From contig CM001633.1 of assembly GCA_000309945.1 (NCBI GenBank), forward strand, positions 2,018,292 through 2,082,291: a stretch of 64,000 bases of DNA, read 5' to 3'. The position numbers and the translations under genes were made by a program. This DNA comes from Leptolyngbyaceae cyanobacterium JSC-12. Its GTDB lineage: Bacteria > Cyanobacteriota > Cyanobacteriia > Leptolyngbyales > Leptolyngbyaceae. The notes under the pieces were generated by a model. That model did not search any database, was not told where the DNA came from, and saw only the letters and a list, made by a program, of their open reading frames with translations. How positions within the stretch are numbered: the stretch's first letter is position 1; the number at the start of each line of letters is the position of its first letter. Below, in pieces: positions 51,453 through 58,206 of this stretch.

Positions 51453-52685
51453 ATGCACATTGCTTGGCTTGGAAAAAAATCCCCTTTTTGTGGCAACGTT
51501 ACATACAGCCGGGAGGTAACCACTGCCCTGCAAGAACTTGGGCATCAGGTTAGCTTTTTCCATTTTGCTCAAGATGAACCTGCTCCTGACCACTGGCCCG
51601 AGGTACCTGAGGGACATGAAACGGTTCAAGAAATTTCAATTCCCTACCTGCTGAAGTATCAGATTTACACAATTCCCACGTTGCAATCTCGTAAGGTTCT
51701 CACCCAGGCGTTGCAAGAACTGCGTCCAGATATTGTTCATGCATCGTTGACCCTTTCTCCGTTAGATTTTGCCTTGCCCGAAATCTGCGAAGACTTAAAC
51801 ATCCCACTGGTTGCTACATTTCATCCCGCTTTCGATCGCGAACAGCGTAACCTCAGTGCTCGGACTCAGTATTTGAGTTATCAACTCTATGCACCCTGGT
51901 TAGCAAAATACGATCGCATCATCGTTTTTTCTCGCTTGCAGCGGCGGTTATTGATTCGGCTCGGGGTCCCTCCAGCCAGAGTGGTGGTTATTCCAAATGG
52001 GGTAGACATTAAGAAATATTCCCCTGGCAGTTCCAACTTTAAAGCCGAAATTGGCGCAGAGCGAGTCTTTTTATATCAAGGACGAATTTCCCCTGAGAAG
52101 AATGTGGAGTCTTTGTTGAAAGCCTGGAAACAATCTAGGATGGGAGAAAAGTCCAAATTAGTGATCGTTGGTAATCATGGCGCATTAGCCAATTCACTGA
52201 TGCCATTCTACGGTTCAGAACACGGGATTGAGTGGTTAGGCTTTATTGCCGATGAGCAGCGGCGAATTGAGATTTTGCGGGGAACTGATGTGTTTGTATT
52301 GCCTTCTCTCGTTGAAGGACTATCGTTGTCACTATTGGAGGCGATGGCGTGTGGAGTTGCCTGTGTTGCAACAGATGTAGGAGCAGATGGCGAAGTTCTG
52401 GAGCAAGAAGCAGGGGTTGTCTTGCTGAGAAATCAACCCGTTACAACACAACTGAAAACATTGCTCCCACTCTTGCGCGACCACACTCAGTGGACACAAA
52501 CCCTGGGAACAAATGCCCGACGACGAGTAGAAGAGCGGTACACCCTGAGCAGCAACATTACCAAAGTAGTTGAACTTTATGATGAGTTATTGACAGAGTT
52601 AAAGCCAACGAAACAGATAGGTCACTACTTTCACTCTATGCGCGATCGCTTCAATAACAGCATCTTGCGATCAGAACGGCTTTAA
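51453..52685 (+). CDS. Glycosyltransferase family 4 protein
   Basis: A GT-B glycosyltransferase of 410 residues from the ATG at 51453; a GTG at 51441 would add four. N-terminal features include WLGKKSPFCGNVTYSREVTTALQELGH. The C-terminal domain has LYQGRISPEKNVESLLKAW and the EX7E motif EGLSLSLLEAMACGVACVATDVGADGE. It probably acts on envelope or exopolysaccharide glycans, unproven. An IS has inserted 21 bases after its stop. Confidence 0.9.
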   Translation: MHIAWLGKKSPFCGNVTYSREVTTALQELGHQVSFFHFAQDEPAPDHWPEVPEGHETVQEISIPYLLKYQIYTIPTLQSRKVLTQALQELRPDIVHASLTLSPLDFALPEICEDLNIPLVATFHPAFDREQRNLSARTQYLSYQLYAPWLAKYDRIIVFSRLQRRLLIRLGVPPARVVVIPNGVDIKKYSPGSSNFKAEIGAERVFLYQGRISPEKNVESLLKAWKQSRMGEKSKLVIVGNHGALANSLMPFYGSEHGIEWLGFIADEQRRIEILRGTDVFVLPSLVEGLSLSLLEAMACGVACVATDVGADGEVLEQEAGVVLLRNQPVTTQLKTLLPLLRDHTQWTQTLGTNARRRVEERYTLSSNITKVVELYDELLTELKPTKQIGHYFHSMRDRFNNSILRSERL

Positions 52686-52687
52686 AG

Positions 52688-52705
52688 CACTTCATTGAAT
52701 ATTTT
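52688..52705 (+). repeat. Left half of an 18-bp tandem repeat split by the IS
   Basis: CACTTCATTGAATATTTT. The matching half, CACTTCGTTGCATATTTT (two mismatches), lies at 54170-54187. Removing the IS and one copy of the 6-bp duplication makes them exactly adjacent. Confidence 0.75.
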
Positions 52706-52706
52706 C

Positions 52707-54164
52707 ACACGACTTGGCAAGTTACCCAGAAAGGAAAAAGATAAGCAGAAAATGTAGGAGACGTTAGCCGTAGCCGTATCATGCTGCCCTTTGTCGCTGT
52801 GCCATCGACGATTGCTCAAGAGTTTGGGAAATATCGAGACCTGTTCTGCCGAGGCGCAGGCTTTGAGCAGGTGAGTCGCTATGTGACCGGATTGCTGTTG
52901 AGTGAGAACAAAACCTTGCAAGGGATTGCCGGACAATGGGTAGCAGGTGGGGAGGTCGGCGGACGAAGAGCGATGCACGCAGCGGTGTTTGAGGCGGGCT
53001 GGAGGAGTTCAGAGTTAATGTCCCATCATCGTGCTGTGATAGCCAAAGAGCATCAGGGGCGAGGGCGAGAAGTCATCAGTCTGGATTGGACGCTCAGCCA
53101 TCACGATTGGGGCAAGCAGATCTTTGGGGTGAAGCGATCCTATGATTATGTGGAACATCGGATGAGTTGCTTTCAAACGGTGGTGACGGCGACGATTGCG
53201 AACCGCCACCTAATTGATGGGATTGACGTGGTGGTGCAGTTTCCAGATTTTTCAGTGGCAGAACGGGAGTATCTGAAAGTGACGGCAAAATCCCACTATG
53301 ACGATTTAGACCAAGTGCGAGAACGACTGATTGAGATGTTGCATTATCACAAGAATCGATTGGAGTATCGCAAACGCACCGAGATTGCCGTCGAGATTGT
53401 GCGCCAAGTGGAAGCGGAAGGACAATTTCCCACCGCCGATTATGCGTTTGACAATGGGGTGTTGACTGTTGAGTTAACCACCATGATTGAGTCCGCAGGA
53501 AAACACTGGGTGAGTGAAGTTGAAAGTTCTCGCAACATCTTGTGGAATGACCAATGGCAACGGGTAGATGCGATTGGTTTAGAACTCAGAATCCATCACC
53601 CAGAGAGCTTTCGCCCGATTCAAGTCACTTGCCGCAACGGCGAAACGAAACCGATTTGGGCATTTACCAAAGTCGTGCGCCTCAAGAAGTTTGGACGCAA
53701 GCGATTGGTCATCGTCCACGAGCAAGCAGATTTACAAGACCCACCTCGCTTCCTGCTCACCGATGCGTTGCATTGGGAAAGTGGGCGAGTCATGCAGACT
53801 TGGAGTTATCGATGGTCCTGCGAGGTCTTTCATGAGGTGAGCAAACAGCACACCGGGCTAGAGTCGGCTCAGGTGCGGAACGAGGAAGCGGTCAACCGTC
53901 ACTTCCGTCTTAGTTGCGTGGCGCAGTCGATTCTGCAACGGACTGCCTGTTCTGGCGCACAATCTGAACGATTTGAGTTTGCTCAAGGCAAGCAAACGGT
54001 GGGACAGAAGCTCTATACCCTCACTCGTCAAGCCTTTGATGATTTGCTGCAATTCATTGTGACGCGATGTTCTCACGGACATACAAATGGACAGATTTTA
54101 CAAGCTCTCCTCCCCAGTTGATTGGCGATCGTTTTTTCTACTTCGGTAACTTGCCAAGTTGTGT
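52707..54164 (+). mobile_element. Insertion sequence, IS4-superfamily type (1458 bp)
   Basis: The ends are a 20-bp inverted repeat with a single mismatch: ACACGACTTGGCAAGTTACC at 52707-52726 and the complement of ACACAACTTGGCAAGTTACC at 54145-54164. Both sides are flanked by the direct repeat ATTTTC (52701-52706 and 54165-54170), a likely 6-bp target duplication. The single gene inside is an intact DDE transposase. The near-perfect inverted repeats and the intact gene suggest a recent insertion. The IS subfamily is not named because no search was possible. Confidence 0.9.
52781..54121 (+). CDS. DDE transposase (IS4-superfamily)
   Basis: A 446-residue transposase filling the IS. Likely catalytic acids are Asp102 (LDWTLS), Asp220/Asp224 (ADYAFDNG) and Glu348. 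The sequence YRWSCEVFHEVSKQ around Glu348 fits the IS4-type R-x3-E-x6-K signature (Arg344, Glu348, Lys355). The full-length frame suggests an active element. The start is ATG 52781; a promoter within the left end is assumed. Confidence 0.88.
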   Translation: MLPFVAVPSTIAQEFGKYRDLFCRGAGFEQVSRYVTGLLLSENKTLQGIAGQWVAGGEVGGRRAMHAAVFEAGWRSSELMSHHRAVIAKEHQGRGREVISLDWTLSHHDWGKQIFGVKRSYDYVEHRMSCFQTVVTATIANRHLIDGIDVVVQFPDFSVAEREYLKVTAKSHYDDLDQVRERLIEMLHYHKNRLEYRKRTEIAVEIVRQVEAEGQFPTADYAFDNGVLTVELTTMIESAGKHWVSEVESSRNILWNDQWQRVDAIGLELRIHHPESFRPIQVTCRNGETKPIWAFTKVVRLKKFGRKRLVIVHEQADLQDPPRFLLTDALHWESGRVMQTWSYRWSCEVFHEVSKQHTGLESAQVRNEEAVNRHFRLSCVAQSILQRTACSGAQSERFEFAQGKQTVGQKLYTLTRQAFDDLLQFIVTRCSHGHTNGQILQALLPS

Positions 54165-54485
54165 ATTTTCACTTCGTTGCATATTTTTTTGAGTTGAACC
54201 GTTCTATTTATTAGAACGGTATAGGTTGATGCTGGAAATAGTCAAAATCTGAAGGTCAAACAGCCCCAAAAAGGACACCTCTCTAGCCCATCCACGATCG
54301 CCAATCGTAAAAACTTAATGAAGTGGAGGCTTGATTCTACGGGCTTTCAACAGACTGTGTAACTAGTGTCACACACAGGAGCATAGTGGTATCACTCATT
54401 GAAAGCGATGGGCGTCTCACTTTAGCTCACTAAAACTCACAATCGTACTGAGTTTCTATCACACTGTCAAGCAATAATTTGAATC
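54165..54485. other. Intergenic region after the IS
   Basis: No gene seen. It starts with the right ATTTTC duplication and the right half of the 18-bp tandem repeat (54170-54187). A perfect hairpin ACCGTTCTA/TAGAACGGT with a 5-base loop lies at 54198-54220 and, before the IS inserted, would have been about 50 bases after the glycosyltransferase stop. It has no T tract. The remainder is the AT-rich leader of the next gene. Confidence 0.55.
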
Positions 54486-54525
54486 ATGATTAATCCTATA
54501 AGCCCCCTTAAAGGATTAATCATGA
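54484..54525 (+). promoter_or_regulatory. Inverted repeat enclosing the start site of the large exported protein gene
   Basis: TCATGATTAATCC (54484-54496) is perfectly complementary to GGATTAATCATGA (54513-54525): a 13-bp stem with a 16-base loop. The right arm contains the likely ATG (54522) and part of its ribosome site (AAAGGA), and the left arm contains the alternative ATG (54486). In RNA the stem would hide the start codon; in DNA it could be an operator. Confidence 0.7.
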
Positions 54526-56663
54526 AACCTGAAAATCACTCCATCAATTTACCTAGTGTTGCCCTGATTGCATCCAATACCAACTGTTCTAATGACTCAA
54601 CCAGCCGTTCCATTGTTCCTGCCAAGACAACCCAACAACGCAATGTCAGACTAGCACGGGAAATTGCTAAGCACATGCCCCGTCTGTTGCCCATCATCGC
54701 TTTGATGTCTGCAACTTCAGCACTGGCTATCCCGGTTGAATCGAACTCTGTCTATGGCAAAGGCATGGTTCTACAAACTTCAAATTCTACAGTCCTGCCA
54801 GCGGGTGTTCAATTCACAGGAGTAGAGCACTCCATTGAGAGCGATCGCTTTTTGCAGATTGAAAGTGTAGATCGCTCCAAGCTTACCATCACGACCTGGG
54901 AAACTACCCTGCCCGTTACTTTGCCCAGCGGAAAAGCAGCAACAGCCACCTTCTACGGTTCACCCGACAAGCCGCTAGAAACACCAGGAACAGCGGTTCA
55001 ACGAGGTTTCACCTTGCCAGAAGAGCGAATTACCTTTTCCACCGATCCCGAATTCTTGCGAAATTCAGGACTAAATGGCATCCAACACAACAACGCTTTT
55101 ACAGGGGAAGGACACGGTCCAACTATCAACCCAACTGAGTTCGGCAACGCCCATATTAAAGGCGGAATGACGACCAGCGCCAACTGGATGGTAGTTCGCG
55201 ACCAGGATGGTAAGGTGCTGTTTGAAGGCACTCCTGCCACCTATGGTGCACAACTGTACTGGGATGGCAATGTTGCTCAAATCTCAGATGCAGAAGGATT
55301 AAACATTGGCGAAGGCAACTATCAAACTAACCGGGAAATCACTACTGAAACCACAACCGAGACAACCCAAGAGCAGCGATCAAGGCAAGCGATCGTTGAA
55401 ACCCAACATACCGTACAAGGGCAAAAAACCTGGAGCACCGTCGAGGCTCAACAGCGCACCGAGCTTTCCACCATAACTAAGCCCTTCCAAACCGAAGAAA
55501 CAAGTCGATTTAGACAAACCTTCGGTTCTGACCTCCGCTCCATTTTTCCACTCCACAACGTCGCCATTTTGCATCACGACAAAAATACCCCCAGCAACTT
55601 TTACTTAAAAACTGGTTTCCAACTCTCTGGCGATGTCAGCAATGAAAGCAACCCCACCCTCTCAGGTCAACTGCGGATTCCACTCGATACCAGACGTGGA
55701 ACCTCCAGCTTGAATATTCTGGTGGGCGGAGCACCCCAAAATGATCAACCAGGGCAACCTGATTTTTATGCCTTGCTCTTCGCCCAGCTCAATACGCCGT
55801 TAGTTCGAGTAGTAGACGGTCAGTATAAACCCAGTCGATTTGTGGCAGGCGTTCGATTTGGTGGTGGAGTTTTCCATGTTCCAATCGCAGAACAAGTGAT
55901 TACCCGAACAATTTCAAAATCAGGTCTGGACATTCTGTCTGAACGACAAACTTTCAACGACTTCACCACCACCACTTGGGGGCAAGATTTCACCACCAAC
56001 TTCACGCAACAGGTTGCTAACAACTATGTAGATACCTACCAGGTCAACACAACCATTCGCACACCAGTAACACGAGACATCACCAATCTAGTGGTCACCA
56101 GAACGGATGGTTCTACGTTTACGGCTCCCGGTTATCAAACTGTCTCCGAACAGCGCGGCGACACAGTTAGAACCAGTGCAGCATCACTGCTTGGCTCAAC
56201 GCTGGTAGCATCTACTACAACTATGCAGCCTGGTAGTACCCAATTTTCAGAGGCTCAGGTGCTTTCTCAGCAAACAGCATCGCAACTGGTTGGAGCAGAA
56301 ACAACCAGCCAGCGGGTGGTGCAGGATGTCAGCGTCAAGCAAACAGTCTCTGAAAAGGATGCATGGGGGCATGTGATGTTTATTAACCCCTACTTTGGGA
56401 ATTTTGATCTTGCTTCAATTAAAAAGCCAGGCAGTTTGTTATACGAGATTGGCGGCAATTTTGTCAGAAATTCCCTGTTAGGGAATGTCAGCTACAAAGA
56501 CTCGAATCTTTACCTGACGACCGGAGTACCGCTGTGGAATCCTACCCTATCAGACACAAAAACTGCTGGAACGGGTCTATTGACCATGCGGGCGTATGCA
56601 GTCTATTTGCCGATGACAAATGATGTGAGAGTGGGAGCAGGTTTGCAATTGAGCGGCTTTTAA
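54522..56663 (+). CDS. Large exported protein of unknown function
   Basis: From the ATG at 54522, which follows AAAGGA, this is 713 residues; the ATG at 54486 would add 12. An unusually long basic/Ser-Thr-rich stretch of about 48 residues precedes a hydrophobic signal-like helix (LLPIIALMSATSALAIPV). The mature part is rich in Thr, Gln and Ser with a coiled Thr/Glu/Gln segment (ETTTETTQEQRSRQ) and a beta-rich C-terminal half. It ends in a terminal Phe after alternating hydrophobic residues (VRVGAGLQLSGF), compatible with an outer-membrane beta strand. No domain is recognised. Its start is enclosed in an inverted repeat. Confidence 0.65.
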   Translation: MKPENHSINLPSVALIASNTNCSNDSTSRSIVPAKTTQQRNVRLAREIAKHMPRLLPIIALMSATSALAIPVESNSVYGKGMVLQTSNSTVLPAGVQFTGVEHSIESDRFLQIESVDRSKLTITTWETTLPVTLPSGKAATATFYGSPDKPLETPGTAVQRGFTLPEERITFSTDPEFLRNSGLNGIQHNNAFTGEGHGPTINPTEFGNAHIKGGMTTSANWMVVRDQDGKVLFEGTPATYGAQLYWDGNVAQISDAEGLNIGEGNYQTNREITTETTTETTQEQRSRQAIVETQHTVQGQKTWSTVEAQQRTELSTITKPFQTEETSRFRQTFGSDLRSIFPLHNVAILHHDKNTPSNFYLKTGFQLSGDVSNESNPTLSGQLRIPLDTRRGTSSLNILVGGAPQNDQPGQPDFYALLFAQLNTPLVRVVDGQYKPSRFVAGVRFGGGVFHVPIAEQVITRTISKSGLDILSERQTFNDFTTTTWGQDFTTNFTQQVANNYVDTYQVNTTIRTPVTRDITNLVVTRTDGSTFTAPGYQTVSEQRGDTVRTSAASLLGSTLVASTTTMQPGSTQFSEAQVLSQQTASQLVGAETTSQRVVQDVSVKQTVSEKDAWGHVMFINPYFGNFDLASIKKPGSLLYEIGGNFVRNSLLGNVSYKDSNLYLTTGVPLWNPTLSDTKTAGTGLLTMRAYAVYLPMTNDVRVGAGLQLSGF

Positions 56664-56718
56664 TCCCAAGTTTCCTGTTTCAAACACCCTGTTTCAAACA
56701 GAAAGGTAATACAACTTG

Positions 56719-56751
56719 AGAGAGCTTGAAAAAACAATAATCAAGCTCTCT
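56719..56751. terminator. Hairpin between convergent genes
   Basis: AGAGAGCTTG (56719-56728) pairs with CAAGCTCTCT (56742-56751) in a perfect 10-bp stem, and can extend on both sides with a bulge. It lies between the convergent stops at 56663 and 56784. Position and stability support a bidirectional terminator; the T tract is weak. Confidence 0.55.
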
Positions 56752-56783
56752 TGTTGAACTTGATTGGGTAACTATCCTTTCGG

Positions 56784-57191
56784 TTAGCGGGAACGAATTG
56801 GACCGTTGTAATCTATTTTGGTTGCCCAGCCGTTCACTGCAACGGTTACCACACTTTCGATAGTGGGTTTGACAGCGGGAGCACCTCCATAAAAGGTGAA
56901 GGTCACTGTGCCGTCATTATTTTCAACGAAACGGGTTTGCTCAACGGGACCGTGCATCAAGGCTTCAGCTCGATATACGCGCAAACCGCCATTCCGTTTT
57001 TCTGCGGCTTGCCGTGCATAGTTTTTAGCTCGGTTTAATACAGTGATGGGGTTGCGATAAACTACAGTATGAGTCTGGGTGCGAATTTCTGTACGCTCAA
57101 GGCTGGTCTGGTTGATATTTTGCGCGATCGCAGAAAGAGGAGTTAGGGCAATCATCCCTAAAGCCATACTGGCTAACCAAGGTGTATTCAT
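56784..57191 (-). CDS. Small secreted protein of unknown function
   Basis: A 135-residue protein with a signal peptide (about residues 1-23, cleavage near SAIAQ). The mature part has a basic helical segment (NRAKNYARQAAEKRNGGLRVY) followed by a predicted beta-rich part (RFVENNDGTVTFTFYGG). No family is recognised. It is transcribed toward the large exported protein gene and ends in the shared hairpin region. Confidence 0.65.
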   Translation of the reverse strand: MNTPWLASMALGMIALTPLSAIAQNINQTSLERTEIRTQTHTVVYRNPITVLNRAKNYARQAAEKRNGGLRVYRAEALMHGPVEQTRFVENNDGTVTFTFYGGAPAVKPTIESVVTVAVNGWATKIDYNGPIRSR

Positions 57192-57379
57192 ACAGGCTGC
57201 TTTTCACTAGGGTTGCGTGCACGCTCTTCAGTGTGCCCTTTTAAAATCCTGAGATAACAGCTTTGAATTTGACGAGAGCGCTAAAAACTTTGATAACTTC
57301 CTGCAAAAATAACAGAGGGGCGAGTATTACCCACCCCATCAAGCATCTTAAGTTTCTCAATAATTGGTGCTTGAGCAAA

Positions 57380-57493
57380 TTACAGCCCAAGCTCATTACC
57401 ACGACGATATTGGAGGTACGCCGCGACAAATAGCCCTGCGAGGGTCACCGGAATCAGACCCAGAACAATACCAAGAAGAATGGGTTCGATCAA
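57380..57493 (-). CDS. petG: Cytochrome b6f complex subunit V
   Basis: A 37-residue small subunit of the cytochrome b6f complex, one transmembrane helix. The protein reads [20 protein letters not shown], then [17 protein letters not shown], which is the standard PetG sequence. The start codon is TTG at 57493, preceded by a strong ribosome site AAAGGAG at a spacing of about seven bases; no ATG exists in the frame. It faces the CytM-like gene divergently across 338 bases. Confidence 0.93.
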
Positions 57494-57831
57494 GTTCAGT
57501 CTCCTTTCAATTAACCAGAATTGGATGATAACGACAATGGCTTATTTTTTTAGTATACGGTGAAGCCGCACCACAAAGTGTTGAGCAACCACACACGATC
57601 CATTAAATATGATCCAATCCATCAAATATGATTGATGAGAAAATCTAGCCTATTCAACGAACTAGTGTTGAAAATTATGTATTTTTAAAGCTAAAGCCTG
57701 AGTTTATAGGATCAAATAGTTACATAATTTCGCTTTTTTGCAAAGTTATCTAAACAAGCTCTAAACTACAAGCAGGCTGATATTAATGCCTTTAGCTTTT
57801 TAGTGATCGTCCATTCATTAACTAAGCGCCT
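57494..57831. other. AT-rich divergent promoter region between petG and the cytochrome gene
   Basis: No gene seen. It contains a 19-bp tandem repeat (57598-57635), several T-rich blocks and the divergent promoters for petG (minus) and the cytochrome gene (plus). Confidence 0.6.
57598..57635 (+). repeat. 19-bp tandem repeat in the petG promoter region
   Basis: ATCCATTAAATATGATCCA (57598-57616) is directly followed by ATCCATCAAATATGATTGA (57617-57635), three mismatches in 19. It could be a paired operator; no regulator is known. Confidence 0.5.
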
Positions 57832-58206
57832 TTGGAAAACCAGGTTCTAGATAAGGAGAATTCAGTTCAGCGGATTGTCGTGATTGTAATGGCAGTCTTT
57901 GTTGTTCTGTTGATGTTAACGATTGGTATCCTTGTGTCTCAGCGTATGGAGCCGTACGCTCGTGATGTCCTTGCTTTGAAAGGAAATCCCGTTCAGGGGC
58001 GAGCTATCTTTCAAATGAATTGTGCCGGATGTCATGGGTTTCAAGCTGACGGGCGAGTTGGTCCTAGTTTGTTAAATGTTTCTTCCCGTAAATCCAAAGT
58101 CAGTATTATTCATCAAGTTACCAGCGGGCAAACTCCTCCTATGCCTCAGTTTCAACCGTCTCCCCAAGAAATGGCTGATCTTCTGAGTTATTTGGAAACC
58201 CTTTAG
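57832..58206 (+). CDS. Membrane-anchored c-type cytochrome, CytM-like
   Basis: A 124-residue cytochrome. An uncleaved-looking anchor helix at about residues 14-36 is followed by the haem motif CAGCH at 64-68 and a probable axial Met104 in TPPMPQF. The single haem domain and anchor resemble cyanobacterial cytochrome M, which is involved in photosynthetic/respiratory electron flow. The frame starts with TTG at 57832 (ENQVLDKENS); no better ATG occurs before the anchor helix, so the exact start is uncertain. It is divergent to petG. The cytochrome call is firm; the CytM label is a resemblance. Confidence 0.75.
   Translation: MENQVLDKENSVQRIVVIVMAVFVVLLMLTIGILVSQRMEPYARDVLALKGNPVQGRAIFQMNCAGCHGFQADGRVGPSLLNVSSRKSKVSIIHQVTSGQTPPMPQFQPSPQEMADLLSYLETL

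What the first reader, a model, noticed from the sequence alone, without database searches (positions are those of the whole stretch)
54484..54525. 13-bp perfect inverted repeat hiding a start codon
TCATGATTAATCC and GGATTAATCATGA flank a 16-base loop. Both possible ATG codons of the downstream gene lie in the arms and the ribosome site is in and beside the right arm. The structure could silence translation until melted, for example by temperature, an sRNA or a ribosome starting at the first ATG, or be a DNA operator.
Basis: partly seen in the sequence, partly recalled or inferred. Interest (0 to 1): 0.6.

Follow-up and report, generated by a model that had tools for sequence, protein, structure and literature searches.

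The report
Hairpin hiding a gene's start signal
In a Leptolyngbya-like cyanobacterium, a strong palindrome shared with one close relative covers the ribosome site and start codon of an unknown, probably exported protein; it most likely acts as an RNA hairpin that holds back translation, an ordinary kind of control on an unusual gene.

Summary
The inverted repeat is real and larger than described: two 19-nt arms (54484-54502, 54507-54525), 18 of 19 positions complementary with one A.A mismatch, around a CCCC loop. It is not chance: 20 shuffles of 464 kb of this genome gave at most 16 of 19 pairs. As RNA it buries the Shine-Dalgarno sequence (54510-54515) and ATG 54522 of a 713-aa orphan gene. 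ATG 54486 is not the main start: in the one relative with the hairpin it is out of frame. That relative (same genus, 78% protein identity, synonymous sites near saturation) keeps at least 32 consecutive nucleotides unchanged, the longest identical run in about 2.6 kb aligned, in a different gene neighbourhood. Its ATG lies 4 nt further out, so the feature common to both is the buried ribosome site. A more distant homologue (65%) lacks the hairpin. Best reading: a lineage-specific cis-acting hairpin limiting translation initiation. A thermometer is unlikely (predicted melting 85-90 C, no destabilising bulge as in hsp17). A DNA operator or promoter element is not excluded: two sequences give no covariation and no transcript start is known. 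New member of a known kind; modest interest.

The parts
54484..54502 (+). left arm of the hairpin, TCATGATTAATCCTATAAG; covers the Shine-Dalgarno sequence when folded
54503..54506 (+). CCCC loop
54507..54525 (+). right arm, holding the Shine-Dalgarno sequence and the start codon
54510..54515 (+). Shine-Dalgarno sequence AAAGGA; five of six bases paired in the predicted stem, A54511 in the A.A mismatch
   Evidence: sequence; mean unpaired probability 0.177 at 37 C
54522..54524 (+). start codon ATG of the gene; paired here, displaced 4 nt outwards in the relative G002
54486..54488 (+). upstream ATG in the left arm; in frame here (12 extra codons), out of frame in G002 (by eye 16 codons, overlapping the start of the main frame)
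54522..56663 (+). 713-aa orphan protein, hydrophobic signal-like stretch at residues 52-69 (by eye), C-terminal Phe; 78% identical to G002, 63-65% to G015; dN 0.133, dS 1.59 against G002
54433..54455 (+). upstream dyad AAACTCA-N9-TGAGTTT (AAACTC-N11-GAGTTT kept in G002); possible regulator site
   Evidence: seen by eye
54442..54470 (-). sigma-70-like match TTGACA-17-TACGAT on the minus strand, with a counterpart in G002 (TTGACA-17-TAAATT); reads away from the gene; number of matches not clearly above the shuffles

Best explanation
A cis-acting mRNA hairpin at the translation initiation region. If the transcript starts at or upstream of 54484, the leader folds into a 14-bp stem, an A.A mismatch, a 4-bp stem and a CCCC loop, which buries AAAGGA and, in this genome, AUG 54522, so initiation is rare. 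Translation then needs opening from outside (a 30S subunit standing by on the A/U-rich stretch just upstream with S1-like help, a helicase, an RNA-binding protein or an sRNA), or takes place before the stem forms. Shown: the repeat's presence, non-randomness, single exact copy, position over SD and ATG, and nucleotide-level conservation in one congener. Predicted: the RNA fold. Inferred: that the left arm is in the mRNA, that it represses, and what opens it.
For: Predicted stem and burial of SD and AUG; beyond chance; ties for strongest of 310 sampled starts. G002 keeps an identical run of 32 nt (54486-54517) and, after a 4-nt indel, another 19 (54518-54536; the indel can also be placed later, which lengthens the first run); the longest run elsewhere in the aligned 2.6 kb, coding sequence included, is 23, while synonymous sites are near saturation (pS 0.66, dS 1.59). 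Read from ATG 54486, eleven further codons are identical in G002, third positions included, so the constraint is on nucleotides. The main ATG is the right start: the N-terminal frame is open in three species and G015 has AAGGAG and ATG at the corresponding place. In both hairpin-bearing genomes the SD is predicted to stay buried. The gene is under purifying selection (dN 0.133 against dS 1.59), so it is not a dead gene.
Against: No transcript data. The two cores are identical, so there is no covariation; the window's outer three pairs are not kept as such in G002, which can form other outer pairs around a one-base bulge in some folds. In G002 the AUG is mostly free (unpaired 0.84 at 37 C). The homologue G015 has an open start region (-3.1 kcal/mol) and the third genome of the genus (84% complete) has neither gene nor core, so the control is not needed by the family. 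A stem of about -20 kcal/mol would be expected to silence translation almost fully. A transcript start inside the palindrome would remove the left arm and leave the SD about half free.
Confidence: 0.55

Rival explanations
1. DNA-level element: the palindrome is an operator or promoter core. TATAAG (54497-54502) would be the -10, transcription would start near 54509-54510 with a leader of about 12 nt that begins with the Shine-Dalgarno sequence, and a regulator would bind the two arms, each holding the self-complementary box GATTAATC, 26 bp centre to centre.
For: Explains conservation of the loop and mismatch as well as of the stem; the upstream block 54431-54483 is 79% identical and, by my count in the printed sequences, lies at the same distance from the element in both genomes (14 nt from TCAAG to ATGATT), as promoter parts do; transcripts starting at 54495 or later leave SD and AUG about half free.
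Against: The promoter scan gives no plus-strand match in either genome; TATAAG lacks the final T and has no fitting -35 by eye. The exact paired box GATTAATC-N(6-34)-GATTAATC occurs once in the genome, so no regulon of exact copies. Arms nearly meeting at a 4-nt centre are more typical of an RNA hairpin than of a repressor site (general knowledge).
Confidence: 0.25
2. 5'-terminal hairpin with a start codon at the very 5' end: transcription from a weak promoter (AATAAT 54473-54478 as -10, the AAACTCA dyad centred about 41 nt upstream of the start) begins at about 54484-54486, and a ribosome that starts on the 5' AUG 54486 without a leader opens the stem for the main start.
For: The positions of AATAAT and the dyad fit an activator at about -41 (by eye); ATG 54486 is kept in both genomes although its A is unpaired in some of the G002 folds.
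Against: The -10 is weak in G002 (AAAAAT, by eye); no plus-strand promoter match by the scan; the peptide read from ATG 54486 is fused to the main protein in one genome and ends out of frame in the other; AUG 54486 is itself paired in the predicted folds of transcripts that start at 54484 or 54486.
Confidence: 0.08
3. RNA thermometer of the hsp17 type.
For: One hairpin holds both the ribosome site and the start codon, as in hsp17 (PMC4477652, abstract and passages).
Against: The predicted stem is still formed at 80 C and loses its stability at 85-90 C; hsp17 has a destabilising 1x3 bulge and an apparent Tm of 46 C, and the mutant with the bulge replaced by a base pair 64 C. The product matches no heat-shock family in Pfam or NCBIfam. 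The growth temperature of this organism is unknown.
Confidence: 0.03
4. By-product of palindrome-making mutation (template switching between arms), kept without regulatory role.
For: The window's arms match each other over a longer perfect stretch than those of G002 (14 against 11 nt), as arm homogenisation would give; template switching is described as a maker of RNA hairpins (PMC8794818, abstract and outline).
Against: The shared core is the longest identical stretch of the locus at near-saturated synonymous divergence, which neutral persistence does not explain.
Confidence: 0.07

Closest known systems
Cis-acting hairpins that sequester the translation initiation region of bacterial mRNAs (general class, from general knowledge)
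   Same: SD and start codon in one stem; expected effect is low initiation unless the stem is opened
   Different: opener unknown; stem unusually long and nearly perfect; found here in two genomes only
hsp17 RNA thermometer of cyanobacteria (PMC4477652, abstract and passages)
   Same: short single hairpin with ribosome site and start codon in the stem, in cyanobacteria
   Different: hsp17 has a 1x3 internal bulge and an apparent Tm of 46 C; here one A.A mismatch, predicted melting 85-90 C, and an unrelated gene
Operator palindromes at promoters (general class, from general knowledge)
   Same: large inverted repeat just upstream of a gene, at fixed distance from another conserved dyad
   Different: no plus-strand promoter match at the site, single exact copy, arms separated by 4 bp only

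Membership tests
Translation-initiation-blocking hairpin | SD and/or start codon paired in a stable stem | tested here: met
   (prediction); in G002 SD paired, AUG largely free
Translation-initiation-blocking hairpin | whole stem present in the transcript | not testable with these tools
   no transcript start data; promoter scans inconclusive
Translation-initiation-blocking hairpin | pairing kept through compensatory changes | tested here: inconclusive
   only two sequences, core identical; the window's outer three pairs not kept as such in G002
Translation-initiation-blocking hairpin | disrupting the stem raises translation | not testable with these tools
   needs a reporter assay
RNA thermometer | stem melts near physiological temperature, usually through bulges or weak pairs | tested here: not met
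   by prediction only, compared with hsp17; growth temperature of this organism unknown
Riboswitch or other curated RNA family | match to an Rfam model | tested here: not met
   0 matches at E up to 1 in 52500-58000
Intrinsic terminator | G+C-rich stem followed by a T run | tested here: not met
   0 found on either strand in 54160-54620
Dispersed repeat or mobile element (REP, MITE) | several copies in the genome | tested here: not met
   1 exact copy in G000; 34-nt core with up to 3 mismatches once each in 2 of 388 genomes
Leader-peptide translational attenuator | upstream leader ORF with its own ribosome site, separate from the main frame | tested here: not met
   ATG 54486 lies in the stem, has no SD by eye and is in the main frame in one genome but not in the other
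Leader-peptide translational attenuator | alternative pairing of the hairpin arms | tested here: inconclusive
   with the left arm present the arms pair with each other in the folds; without it (start at 54495 or later) the window's right arm pairs with coding sequence at about 54564-54575 (-9.1 kcal/mol); the G002 counterparts fold weakly (-2.9 to -6.3)
DNA operator | palindrome bound by a regulator at a working promoter | tested here: inconclusive
   no plus-strand promoter match; exact paired box unique in the genome; binding not testable

The most novel reading that the evidence does not exclude
The transcript begins exactly at the hairpin, so the mRNA carries a 5'-terminal stem whose first codon is an AUG; a ribosome that starts there without a leader opens the stem for the main start. 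In one genome the upstream frame is fused to the protein, in its congener it is a separate overlapping peptide: a start-switch read from the 5' end.
Probability: 0.06. Interest if true: 0.55.

Novelty: new member of a known kind. Interest (0 to 1): 0.3.

Why it matters
A near-perfect stem over both SD and AUG should almost abolish translation of a gene that selection clearly maintains. If it is transcribed, something in these cyanobacteria must open a stem of about -20 kcal/mol on demand, and this short element would be a convenient reporter to find it. If it is not in the transcript, it marks a dedicated operator for an uncharacterised, probably exported protein.

Tried and rejected
Rfam scan: nothing. 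Repeat or mobile element: rejected, single copy. Terminator: rejected. Thermometer: disfavoured by prediction. Upstream ATG as main start: rejected on G002. In 386 phylum genomes 2 matched, the own genome and G623 with one weak partial match (E 5.7e-4), not followed up. Structure of the product: AlphaFold2 on two sequences gave mean pLDDT 26.6, useless, so no fold search was run; the PDB sequence search gave one match at E 0.7, taken as chance; Pfam gave none; NCBIfam one weak match (E 0.04) far below its cut-off. The first hairpin background count was spoilt by runs of N and redone without them. Literature searches (listings only, apart from the three papers cited) were not aimed at this gene, so I make no claim that it is absent from print.

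Full report
What is there. The window is part of a single 5,530,391-bp contig. At 54484-54525 lies a 42-nt hairpin sequence: arms 54484-54502 and 54507-54525, 18 of 19 positions complementary, one A.A mismatch (54498/54511), loop CCCC. Predicted RNA energy is -20.2 kcal/mol, z -8.67.

Chance. In 464,000 bases of this genome two distinct hairpins of 19-nt arms and loop 3-6 reach 18 pairs, this one and one in L024; one more with 17 pairs lies in L022. Both others lie between ORFs of 100 aa or more. Twenty shuffles of the same DNA reach at most 16. Among 310 ORF starts (ORFs of 150 aa or more, my own start rule) the fold of this start region ties with one other for the most stable, -21.0 against a mean of -7.2, sd 3.8. 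The exact repeat occurs once in the genome.

Which start is used. SD AAAGGA 54510-54515 and ATG 54522 give a 713-aa protein. ATG 54486 is in frame here, but in G002 a 4-nt insertion between the right arm and the main ATG puts it out of frame. G015 (same family) starts at the corresponding place with its own AAGGAG. So the upstream ATG is not the start of the conserved protein, and eleven identical codons after it, third positions included, speak for constraint on nucleotides, not on a peptide.

Conservation. Proteins of the window and G002 are 78% identical; synonymous sites are near saturation (pS 0.66, dS 1.59) and dN is 0.133. Nucleotide identity, gaps counted, is 56.8% at 54300-54380, 63.5% at 54381-54430, 79.2% at 54431-54483, 85.4% over the element 54484-54525 (the loss being the indel and the outer left arm), 62.6% at 54526-54700 and about 76% in the rest of the gene. 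The run 54486-54517 is identical (32 nt), followed after the 4-nt indel by 54518-54536 (19 nt); no other run in the alignment exceeds 23. Codons 2-5, just after the hairpin, belong to the kept stretch. The neighbours differ: an IS701-like transposase on the left and a 135-aa minus-strand ORF on the right here; a 481-aa ORF (6-phosphogluconate dehydrogenase by its look) and a 485-aa transporter-like ORF in G002; a glycosidase-like and a dehydrogenase-like ORF in G015 (the names for G002 and G015 are from inspection only, not searched). So leader and gene keep together in the two congeners although the surroundings differ.

Against. The core with up to 3 mismatches is in 2 of 388 class genomes. 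The family itself is in 3 of 388 and the same 3 of 42 in the order. A third genome of the genus, G001 (84% complete), has neither. G015 has no hairpin (start region -3.1 kcal/mol). Two sequences with identical cores give no covariation; the window's outer three pairs are not kept as such in G002, which makes other outer pairs around a bulge in some folds. In G002 the AUG is mostly free and only the SD is buried.

Mechanism. With the transcript start at 54484 or upstream, SD (mean unpaired 0.177) and AUG (0.001) are closed at 37 C in the window; with the start at 54495 or later they are about half free, the right arm then pairing weakly with coding sequence at about 54564-54575. The whole question thus turns on the transcript start. 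The promoter scan shows no plus-strand match in either genome; on the minus strand there are three in the window region (shuffles: mean 0.9, sd 0.8) and one in G002 (0.7, sd 0.8), one pair of which corresponds, so this may be chance. By eye there is a conserved dyad AAACTC-N11-GAGTTT, and the distance from the conserved block to the hairpin is the same 14 nt in both, which would suit promoter parts. I hold the mRNA hairpin most likely (0.55) because both SD and AUG fall in a tight, four-base-loop stem; a DNA operator or promoter core comes next (0.25). Heat opening is unlikely: the predicted stem lasts to 80 C, whereas hsp17 has an apparent Tm of 46 C and a destabilising bulge (PMC4477652, abstract and passages). 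Stability figures are predictions with default parameters.

The product. 713 aa, a signal-like hydrophobic stretch after about 50 residues (by eye), C-terminal Phe, no Pfam family at E up to 1, no usable fold. An outer-membrane or surface role is a guess from the sequence.

Verdict. A real, selected element of a known kind with an unknown trigger, in a narrow lineage. Novelty: new member of a known kind. Interest 0.3.

Noticed in passing
52708-54163: IS701-like element (446-aa transposase, NCBIfam IS701 E 1.9e-27 but below its cut-off) with about 33-nt inverted ends (82% complementary), flanked by an 8-bp direct repeat TATTTTCA (52700-52707, 54164-54171), upstream of the gene (exact ends read by eye).
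   Followed up: partly
54522-56663: Orphan 713-aa probably exported protein, found in 3 of 388 genomes of the class sampled, in a different gene neighbourhood in each.
   Followed up: partly
54442-54470: Minus-strand TTGACA-17-TANNNT match with a counterpart in the congener, although there no minus-strand ORF of 80 aa or more lies between the upstream 481-aa ORF and the gene.
   Followed up: no
54199-54221: Perfect 9-bp hairpin ACCGTTCTA-TTTAT-TAGAACGGT between the insertion element and the gene, seen by eye.
   Followed up: no
54120-54132 and 54294-54306: 13-bp perfect inverted repeat GATTGGCGATCGT, one copy at the end of the transposase frame, the other between the element and the gene.
   Followed up: no
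56716-56755: Inverted repeat with an A-rich loop between the convergent genes, possibly a shared terminator, seen by eye.
   Followed up: no
L040: A weak partial match of the protein family (profile 521-610, E 5.7e-4) in a distant genome, G623, inside a 964-aa open frame.
   Followed up: no
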